DNA of 28,175 nucleotides from a virus, in the IMG/VR virus record IMGVR_UViG_3300022188_000047, positions 1 to 28,175 of that record. One strand, written 5' to 3'. Position numbers and translations under genes: made by a program. The notes below the pieces were generated by a model. The model ran no database searches. It was not told the DNA's origin and saw only the letters and a list, made by a program, of their open reading frames with translations. Shown here piece by piece: positions 17,335 through 18,907 of the stretch. Numbering within the stretch: position 1 is the first letter of the stretch; the number at the start of each line of letters is the position of its first letter.

Positions 17335-18907
17335 TTAATTTACCAAAATATCAAATAACAACCCTTTTGTATTTGTCCAAGCCTTAAATTCCCAATCCAA
17401 TCTTTGATGTATTGAAACACCAGACATTGGACCAGCTTCGTTTGAACCGCTTTCTTTTTGAGCTGGAACTTGAGTAATGTAAACTTTTCCGTAAGTGCTT
17501 TTGCAAATACCTACGTGAAATAAGTTTTTAACACCACCAAATAGATGTCCTGAAGTATGAGAATTAGATACATAATGATCTACTCCCATATAATGAAACC
17601 CTTCTACAAGTCCATTCTTCAAAACATTATCAGCTGTATTAAAACCATTCGCTTGCGCAAATTGTTCTAATTTCTCAAAATCTTCCGCTCTCCATAGAAT
17701 AAATATCCCATTTCGTTTTGCAAGTTTTGTTCCATTTGCCTCTCTGATTTCTCTTTTCAAGCCTGTTATAATATCTCTGATATTAGTAACAGCAACATCT
17801 ATGTTTCCTGCTGACCCGCCAATAGCCGAATTATCAAAATTCGTCCACATAGCGTGATTTGCAAGCATATCTGTTTCAACATATTCATTAAGAATATCGC
17901 CTGACAATTCTGCCATTTCCATTTGCTTTACATATCTTGATTGTGCTAAATCAGCGTAATCAATATATACGGGCCAAACCATTGATTGGTTTATCGTTAC
18001 ATATTCATTAGTGACAGCAAAATCTTGATGAGTAAAGGCTGAACCTCTGGTATGAGATTGCGCGGATGGAGTAGTAGACATATAAGGATTATTAAAAACC
18101 CTACCGTCTGTATATTCCACTTTGCAAATTTCTTTCCAGTTTTGTGGGTAGTTTAATCTCTCTTGGAGTTTAACTGCCCAATCTTCTGCATACTTTTTTG
18201 TTACTACCCTAAAATAGGGCGGAGAAAACACTTCGGATTTCTCTCTTCATCTTCTTTTAATTTTTTGAGGATGGACCACAACTATTATATTTTATGTCAT
18301 ATTTTTTATGACAACTTCTACATAATGGTGTATAGTCTTTTAGTTCGCGTGTATAAGAATGGTCTTTGTTTGACCAATCGTTAGCTTATTTTCCGCAATG
18401 TTTACATTTACAATTTTTAGCTTTACCTAATTTAGTTTCAATCCATTTATGAATTGCACCAACAGTAGCTAAATTTCCTTTCATTAAGTTCGGTCTATCT
18501 TTACCAAGCCAATATTTTGCATTGTTCTTTTTTACCTTAGCTTTTGTTTCTTCTGATAATTTTCTACCTTTCATCCATTTTCCAACTTTAGATTTTTTAC
18601 ATCCTTTACTTATTTTCTTTTTTGTTTCTTCAGATACTACGCGTGTATATCCTTTGACAAATTGTCCTTTTTTATTTCTCATATATTGCCATTCTTCTGC
18701 ATAAGTCAAAAAATTAAATTTTAAAGTTCAATTATAATGAAGTTCAGACTATCGCTTCTTTCTTTTTCCCATAATTAGAAAGCTTCTTCGCTTAGTCGTT
18801 CAGGCTAGCTTTACCCTTGCCCCTTGTTATCCCTTGAATATAGGACCTCCAAGTCAATCAGAAGAAGTTTATAGTTGCCTATGCTACTAAACAACTGTAT
18901 TTCCCAT
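17335..18907 (-). CDS. Major capsid protein, interrupted by a group I intron (exons 18907-18890 and 18192-17335)
   Basis: Exon 1 is only 18 bases, encoding MGNTVV; exon 2 encodes 285 residues starting YAEDWAVKLQERLNY. The spliced product is 291 aa, with both exons joining on codon boundaries. The sequence (FTHQDFAVTNEYVTINQSMV, AELSGDILNEYVETDMLAN, GVDHYVSNSHTSGHLFGGVK) has the composition and order of an HK97-fold coat protein. It follows the scaffold gene and precedes the adaptor. A naive caller would start exon 2 at a GTG at 18231 and add 13 intron-coded residues (MFSPPYFRVVTKK). P1 and P10 pairing define the splice sites. Exon 1 start: the only in-frame ATG after a TAA; no close Shine-Dalgarno. 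Confidence 0.8.
18193..18889 (-). ncRNA. Self-splicing group I intron in the capsid gene
   Basis: Minus-strand elements seen directly: the 5' exon end AGTTGTT pairs with the guide GGCAACT (18873-18879), giving the canonical U-G at the splice site. Guide GCATA (18880-18884) pairs with the 3' exon TATGC (P10), and the intron ends in G (18193). P3 is CTTCTTC (18861-18867) with GAAGAAG (18783-18789). P7 is GACTA (18793-18797) with TAGTC (18747-18751) in the typical CGACTA ... GATAGTC context. P8 is CTTTCT/AGAAAG. The endonuclease frame lies after the P7 3' strand. Length is 697 nt. Splicing is inferred from known group I rules. Confidence 0.9.
18257..18709 (-). pseudogene. Intron-borne NUMOD3-HNH homing endonuclease with an in-frame stop
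   Basis: The frame begins around MRNKKGQFVKGYTR (ATG near 18682; open from 18709) with NUMOD3-type repeats (SEETKKKISKGCKKS, LSEETKAKVKKNNAKYW), then CKCKHCGK and a TAA at 18386-18388. Reading on in the same frame gives ANDWSNKDHSYTRELKDYTP and LCRSCHKKYDIKYN, the rest of a normal HNH domain (second Cys pair and His), to a stop at 18257. The single nonsense codon removes the catalytic part, so the endonuclease is probably dead, while the intron can still splice. A sequencing error or readthrough is the alternative; TAA ends other genes here, so it is not recoded. Confidence 0.8.

What the first reader, a model, noticed from the sequence alone, without database searches (positions are those of the whole stretch)
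18193..18889. Group I intron after the sixth codon of the major capsid gene
P1, P10, P3, P7 and P8 can be drawn directly. The two splice sites join exon 1 (MGNTVV) to YAEDWAVKL on a codon boundary and the intron ends in G. An 18-base first exon is very short. The capsid protein would be mis-annotated with a GTG start and 13 intron-coded residues, and its true start lies 676 bases upstream.
Basis: partly seen in the sequence, partly recalled or inferred. Interest (0 to 1): 0.8.

Follow-up and report, generated by a model that had tools for sequence, protein, structure and literature searches.

The report
Group I intron splitting capsid gene start
An uncultured phage has its main shell-protein gene interrupted after only six codons by a self-splicing RNA intron, and relatives of this phage carry similar introns, from more than one lineage, at almost the same spot.

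Summary
Window 18889-18193 (minus strand, 697 nt) is a group I intron between MGNTVV and YAEDW of a major head protein gene (phrog_267). Rfam finds nothing here, but a covariance model from 39 other viral introns, window excluded, hits 18740-18874 at 113 bits, E 1.5e-27; its helices, including the P7 pseudoknot, covary. P1 pairs 7 of 7 with U.G at the splice site; the intron ends in G. Intronless homologues begin MNTIV|YAEEW or MAVDVVNTVV|YAEDW; none printed has the GTG-start N-terminus.
The window's core groups with introns of other genes, so at least two lineages invaded this spot. Its HNH gene is cut short by a TAA. Splicing itself is inferred. Capsid introns are known, so this is a new member; the start-codon hot spot is the noteworthy part.

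The parts
18890..18907 (-). Exon 1 of the major capsid gene, ATGGGAAATACAGTTGTT (MGNTVV)
   Evidence: homologues MNTIV|YAEEW, MAVDVVNTVV|YAEDW, MSNTIV|YAEEW
18193..18889 (-). Group I intron, 697 nt; begins with in-frame stop TAG, ends in G
18740..18874 (-). Catalytic core (P3-P8 and the 3' strand of P7)
   Evidence: covariance model R1, 113.1 bits, E 1.5e-27
18890..18896 (-). P1 5' strand (AGUUGUU), last U is the 5' splice site
   Evidence: 7 of 7 pairs with 18879-18873
18873..18879 (-). Internal guide sequence, P1 3' strand (GGCAACU)
18880..18884 (-). P10 intron strand (GCAUA), pairs with exon 2 UAUGC at 18192-18188
   Evidence: read
18861..18867 (-). P3 5' strand (CUUCUUC), pairs with GAAGAAG 18789-18783
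18793..18797 (-). P7 5' strand (GACUA), pairs with UAGUC 18751-18747; further pair A18799-U18746 with C18798 bulged
   Evidence: covariation in 39 relatives: 2 of 6 pairs vary and both compensate
18758..18782 (-). P8 hairpin (CUUUCU/AGAAAG)
   Evidence: read
18737..18742 (-). P9 5' strand (CUUCAU), pairs with AUGAAG 18250-18245; the HNH ORF sits in its loop
   Evidence: read by comparison with the three 3' hairpins of L028 and L057
18222..18243 (-). P9.1 hairpin
   Evidence: fold of the 3' end
18207..18219 (-). P9.2 hairpin, followed by GUAACAAAAAAG; with its neighbours it codes the residues of the false GTG start
   Evidence: fold; GTAACAAAA also precedes the 3' splice site in L028, L057, L222, L228 and L233
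18386..18682 (-). HNH homing endonuclease ORF (from ATG, 98 aa) with NUMOD3 repeats, ended by TAA 18388-18386 ahead of the HNH core
   Evidence: NUMOD3 E 4.3e-5, phrog_314 homing endonuclease E 1e-4, read-through translation
18257..18385 (-). Rest of the HNH domain (ANDWSNKDHSYTRELKDYTPLCRSCHKKYD...) in the same frame, beyond the stop
   Evidence: intact relative L021, 51% identical over query residues 39-144
18688..18703 (-). Exon-2-like copy TATGCAGAAGAATGGC (exon 2: TATGCAGAAGATTGGG), just upstream of the HNH ATG and in its frame
   Evidence: 1 of 5000 shuffles as good
17335..18192 (-). Exon 2 of the major capsid gene, 285 codons and stop
   Evidence: phrog_267 major head protein E 2.1e-11

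Best explanation
A self-splicing group I intron interrupts the major capsid gene after its sixth codon. Exon 1 pairs with the guide sequence to form P1 (U.G at the 5' splice site), guanosine attacks there, and the freed exon joins UAUGC of exon 2, held by P10, after the last G (18193); the 291-aa capsid protein is read from the joined RNA. Unspliced RNA gives only MGNTVV, because the first intron codon is UAG. The intron is a mobile element by descent: its P9 loop holds an HNH homing endonuclease gene of NUMOD3 type, here cut short by a TAA ahead of the catalytic part, so this copy has probably lost its own homing activity and persists by splicing well. Shown by sequence: core, splice-site pairings, junction in homologues, ORF and stop. 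Inferred: splicing itself, mobility, loss of homing.
For: Covariance hit without the window in the model, E 1.5e-27; in the model alignment 98.3% of cells pair and 24 of 30 pairs show double changes, 0 of 500 shuffles reach either. A member of the same alignment (L121) is matched by Rfam Intron_gpI at 35.3 bits, E 2.7e-5, below the gathering score, and a 39-base stretch of it matches staphylococcal phage DNA, in several records annotated Intron_gpI. P1 7 of 7 with U.G, terminal G. Intronless homologues show the joined junction. In a 40%-identical capsid gene (L020) the contig begins inside a sequence ending AAAAAAG at the same codon boundary. HNH.
Against: No Rfam group I match at E up to 10. 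The core with its flanks does not fold better than shuffles by energy alone (z 0.10); the program cannot draw the pseudoknot, but this gives no support. The model's members were gathered with motifs of this intron. No RNA data. The stop in the HNH ORF could also be a sequencing error.
Confidence: 0.94

Rival explanations
1. No intron: the capsid gene starts at GTG 18231 with 13 extra residues, and 18232-18907 is an intergenic stretch with a small ORF.
For: Mechanical ORF calling gives this start; general Rfam model silent.
Against: Homologues lack these residues and several carry an N-terminus matching exon 1; full group I core; the 13 residues are coded by the P9.2 hairpin and the 3' end, and L028 and L057 show the same kind of false extension with VTK from GTAACAAAA.
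Confidence: 0.03
2. A real group I intron that is splicing-defective or misassembled in this record, so that this phage is dead or the contig is chimeric.
For: The HNH ORF already carries a stop.
Against: All 24 modelled pairs, P7 and P1 are intact, and exon 2 is open and close to its homologues.
Confidence: 0.03
3. Two 3' splice sites: besides full removal, the ribozyme can use the exon-2-like copy at 18703 inside the intron, where UAUGC can form the same P10. With the G at 18707 as last intron base this joins the capsid start codon in frame to the HNH ORF (MGNTVVTYAEEWQYMRNKKGQFVKG...), giving the nuclease, or its DNA-binding part, the capsid gene's start signal.
For: Copy identical in 15 of 16 in the best segment, 1 of 5000 shuffles; in frame with both exon 1 and the HNH ORF; the HNH ATG has no convincing promoter here (367 of 1000 shuffles as good), unlike the ORFs of L233 and L020 (0 of 1000).
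Against: The base before UAUGC is U, so P10 would sit 3 nt off; the GUAACAAAA end is absent there; being in frame is a one-in-three event; L028 has a similar copy (78 of 5000 shuffles) before an HNH gene that lies upstream of the intron, where it cannot be a splice site; over whole loci a 16-base match with up to 3 mismatches is common (10 of 100 random 16-mers).
Confidence: 0.1
4. The exon-2-like copy is an operator: the HNH protein binds its homing site and also this copy, repressing its own gene, as I-TevI does in phage T4.
For: Similar place relative to the ORF in the window and L028, between -35-like and -10-like hexamers in both; precedent with 15 of 20 identity in T4 td (PMC2988022, passages).
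Against: No promoter called at either place, scores not above shuffles, and the window's -10-like hexamer overlaps the ATG.
Confidence: 0.15

Closest known systems
Group I intron in the capsid gene of mycobacteriophage LittleE
   Same: Group I-type intron with an endonuclease ORF in a major capsid gene, exon 1 ending in U and intron ending in G; splicing shown there by RT-PCR and N-terminal sequencing (PMC3706429, passages).
   Different: LittleE's intron lies at nucleotide 496 of the gene (PMC11855218, passages) with a LAGLIDADG-like ORF on the other strand; here it lies after nucleotide 18 with an HNH ORF on the same strand.
Staphylococcal phage (Kayvirus) introns annotated Intron_gpI
   Same: A 39-base stretch at the 3' end of the core of a close relative of this subfamily (L121) matches at 89.7%.
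   Different: The window's own core has no match in the 50,697 phage records at E 0.01.
Phage T4 td intron with I-TevI
   Same: Group I intron with an endonuclease ORF preceded by a homing-site-like sequence (PMC2988022, passages).
   Different: I-TevI is a GIY-YIG enzyme with proven promoter and operator; here an HNH ORF with a stop and no convincing promoter.
Group I introns of Jug phages
   Same: Many small group I introns in phage genes, found with subtype covariance models (PMC12363816, passages).
   Different: The passages read name terL, nrdD and DNA polymerase genes, not the capsid gene start.

Membership tests
Group I intron | Conserved core P3-P8 with the P3/P7 pseudoknot | tested here: met
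   R1 hit 113.1 bits; P7 as pseudoknot counted in 39 relatives, 100% of cells paired; in the window all these pairs stand
Group I intron | P1 between the end of exon 1 and the internal guide sequence, with U.G at the splice site | tested here: met
   7 of 7 pairs; the same in all six complete start-proximal introns
Group I intron | Last intron base G, P10 with the 3' exon | tested here: met
   G at 18193; GCAUA with UAUGC. By eye no P10 could be drawn for L028 and L222
Group I intron | Match to the curated Rfam family RF00028 at its gathering score | tested here: not met
   No match; only 1 of 7 subfamily loci gives even a sub-threshold match. This is a curation threshold, not a biological feature
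Group I intron | Guanosine-initiated self-splicing | not testable with these tools
   needs RNA
HNH homing endonuclease (active) | DNA-binding NUMOD3 repeats and HNH catalytic motif in one reading frame | tested here: not met
   NUMOD3 met; the HNH motif lies beyond an in-frame TAA
Phage major capsid protein | Profile match of exon 2 | tested here: met
   phrog_267 E 2.1e-11; no Pfam match at 0.001

The most novel reading that the evidence does not exclude
In this phage group the first six codons of the capsid gene are a landing zone for unrelated group I introns, and the place matters: P1 is built from the start codon or begins within 11 nt of it, inside the footprint of an initiating ribosome, and unspliced RNA is stopped at once. 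Splicing and initiation would then exclude each other on one RNA, so that the ribozyme acts as a licence or timer for capsid synthesis; in the window the exon-2-like copy may in addition route some transcripts into an HNH fusion.
Probability: 0.15. Interest if true: 0.8.

Novelty: new member of a known kind. Interest (0 to 1): 0.52.

Why it matters
It corrects the annotation of the main structural protein of an uncultured phage and shows how gene callers hide such genes: the second exon looks like a complete gene with a GTG start. The wider pattern is a testable case of repeated intron invasion of one short stretch: at least two intron lineages at three insertion points within 12 nt near the capsid gene start, across capsid genes as little as 40% identical and one capsid of another type. 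If splicing there competes with ribosome loading, it would be a natural experiment on the coupling of ribozyme folding and translation initiation in what is usually a very strongly expressed phage gene.

Tried and rejected
Rfam at gathering and at E up to 10: no group I match in the window or, at E up to 1, in L020. Free-energy folding of the core: not better than shuffles, dropped as evidence. blastn of the whole intron in named phages gave only short weak matches at E limit 10, of the core none at 0.01. Exon 2 has no tblastn match in named phages. HNH query in viral contigs: two loci, L021 and L022; neither showed an intron at a capsid start. A second 3'-splice-site pattern aimed at the window's own site found nothing. 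Promoter for the window's HNH gene: none convincing. Query with the hidden nuclease of the intein: no relative confirmed. Bastillevirinae intron paper PMC11878797: none of five search terms present. Literature on start-proximal capsid introns: the listings showed no such report; only a few papers were opened, by passages, and the held library is limited.

Full report
Observation. The coordinates hold exactly: exon 1 18907-18890, intron 18889-18193, exon 2 from 18192 to the stop at 17335. The record is a viral contig of 28,175 bases. Exon 2 is a major head protein (phrog_267, E 2.1e-11; no Pfam family).

Homologues. 20 loci and 80 loci encode relatives; 13 contigs are in both lists, so 87 distinct contigs. 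Their upstream sequence was printed. Intronless ones read, for example, MAVDVVNTVV|YAEDW (L002), MNTIV|YAEEW (L005), MSNTIV|YAEEW (L034), MANTII|YAEEW (L058). None printed carries the 13 residues of the GTG start. Some have no ATG, GTG or TTG where relatives start (see noticed items), and others have quite different N-termini, so not every homologue informs the junction.

Core. Rfam gives nothing. 55 stretches also had a TGATTGACTTGGA-like motif and a compact core, and after removal of near-copies and of L028 and L057, 39 remained. Their alignment folds into P3, P4, P5, P6 and P8, with 22 of 24 pairs showing double changes. With P7 added as a pseudoknot 98.3% of cells pair, 24 of 30 pairs have double changes, 0 of 500 shuffles are as high, and slid versions drop to 38-47%. 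The model R1 finds one place in the window, 18740-18874 minus, 113.1 bits, E 1.5e-27, with no non-standard pair among the 24. Of 7 subfamily loci given to Rfam at E 0.1, one (L121) matched Intron_gpI, at 35.3 bits against a cut-off of 50.

Relatives with an intron at the capsid start. R1 over all 104 loci L001-L102, L221 and L222 (75, 29) gives strong hits in L028, L057, L222 and in the middle of the L020 capsid gene; three weak ones (L022, L060, L013, 19-22 bits) were not followed. L222 is a contig of a Parcubacteria MAG. L020 begins 59 nt inside a sequence that ends AAAAAAG at the boundary NTIV|W, the same codon boundary as in the window. Two patterns for the 3' splice site plus exon were then run. 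The first found 19 stretches, of which 6 have R1 hits: L226 (identical to L222 over 2100 nt) and L227 (same length as the L222 contig), L228 and L242 (another capsid type, like each other), L230 (the contig of L028) and L233, which scores only 25.8 bits because its ORF splits the core. The other 13 were not followed. The second pattern found none. Leaving out copies, there are seven start-proximal cases: the window, L028, L057, L222, L228, L233 and the cut-off L020. Of the 87 contigs, 3 (L020, L028, L057) have one; L222, L228 and L233 come from other searches and cannot be used for a frequency.

Anatomy of the six complete ones. Exon 1 is 18, 6, 14, 12, 6 and 12 nt (window, L028, L057, L222, L228, L233); the introns are 697, 206, 203, 679, 765 and 717 nt. 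P1 has 7 of 7 pairs with U.G at the splice site in all; all introns end in G. Joined N-termini are MGNTVVYAEDW, MANTIIYAEDW, LANTIIYDEDW (TTG start), MAVANTITYE, MANTIGTSTL and MSVANTITFS. In L028 and L228 the AUG is inside P1; in the others P1 starts 5-11 nt after the first base of the start codon. The first intron codon is a stop in five of six (TAG, TAA, TAA, TAA, TGA); L057 has its stop three codons further on (LANTINS*). The landmarks for this table were picked by eye and then checked by script. By eye the ORF sits in the P9 loop (window, L222), inside the core before P7 (L233), between the 5' splice site and the guide sequence (L228), upstream of the gene (L028), or is missing (L057).

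Two lineages. In a tree of 45 cores the window groups with L198 (100/96) and L205 (96/91), whose introns lie in genes that look like a portal gene and another gene of unassigned type (by eye), while L028, L057, L222 and L228 form their own set (99/95). Trees with all five together: 0 of 200 bootstraps; at least two changes are forced. L233 and the first L020 intron were left out (split or truncated). So the capsid start was reached at least twice. The insertion points lie 0, 4 and 12 nt before the codon that aligns with Y.

HNH gene. The ORF from ATG 18682 has NUMOD3 repeats, and its frame continues after TAA 18388-18386 into a typical HNH core (the motif is named from recall). L021 carries an intact free-standing relative (51%). 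The N-terminal halves of the window and L028 proteins resemble each other by eye (MRNKKGQFVKG, MRDAKGRFVKG), while their C-terminal halves differ.

Exon-2-like copy. 18703-18688 repeats the beginning of exon 2 with two differences in 16. Against 5000 shuffles of the 50 nt before the HNH ATG, 1 is as good; for the similar copy before the HNH gene of L028, 78 of 5000. Over whole loci such matches are not rare: 11 of 97 loci show one with up to 3 mismatches on either strand, and so do 10 of 100 random 16-mers on one strand. Two readings are open: an operator as in I-TevI (PMC2988022, passages), or a second 3' splice site that would fuse the capsid start in frame to the HNH ORF. No promoter stands out there, while L233 and L020 have near-consensus promoters before their intron ORFs (11 and 12 of 12, 0 of 1000 shuffles).

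Verdict. The finding is right in observation and interpretation. Group I introns in phage capsid genes are known (LittleE, PMC3706429, passages; the same passages name lactococcal phage Tuc2009), so this is a new member. What is unusual is the first exon of two to six codons, its recurrence from more than one lineage, and its position where a ribosome would initiate; any function beyond splicing remains inference.

Noticed in passing
window 25042-24161 (minus), nested ORF 24786-24199 (minus): The large terminase gene carries an in-frame intein of 294 aa (Intein_splicing E 4.3e-11), and a different reading frame inside it encodes a 195-aa DUF559-type nuclease (E 1.1e-13): a nuclease hidden out of frame in an intein that stays open in frame, reminiscent of the ShiLan element (PMC11855218, passages) (no relative of the nuclease confirmed in viral contigs).
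   Followed up: partly
L006-L010, L012, L014, L041, L077, L094, L096 upstream of the capsid match: Several capsid homologues have no ATG/GTG/TTG where relatives start; ATA, ATT or ATC stands there (for example ATC GCA AAT ACT ATT GTT in L014), suggesting rare start codons or another hidden first exon.
   Followed up: no
L020, about 617-1522: A second group I intron in the middle of the L020 capsid gene (FVQA|NGFNTAD), P1 CCAGGCT/GGTCTGG by eye, with a 203-aa ORF behind a perfect TTGACA-N17-TATAAT promoter.
   Followed up: partly
window 25042-18193: Two self-splicing elements of different kind (an intein and an RNA intron) lie in two essential structural genes of one 28-kb record.
   Followed up: no
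L006, L008, L009, L012 between the preceding gene and the capsid gene: An imperfect hairpin of varying sequence seems to stand just before the capsid start in several relatives (by eye).
   Followed up: no
L057 2794-2996: A 203-nt intron without ORF at the capsid start that still has three hairpins after P7.
   Followed up: partly
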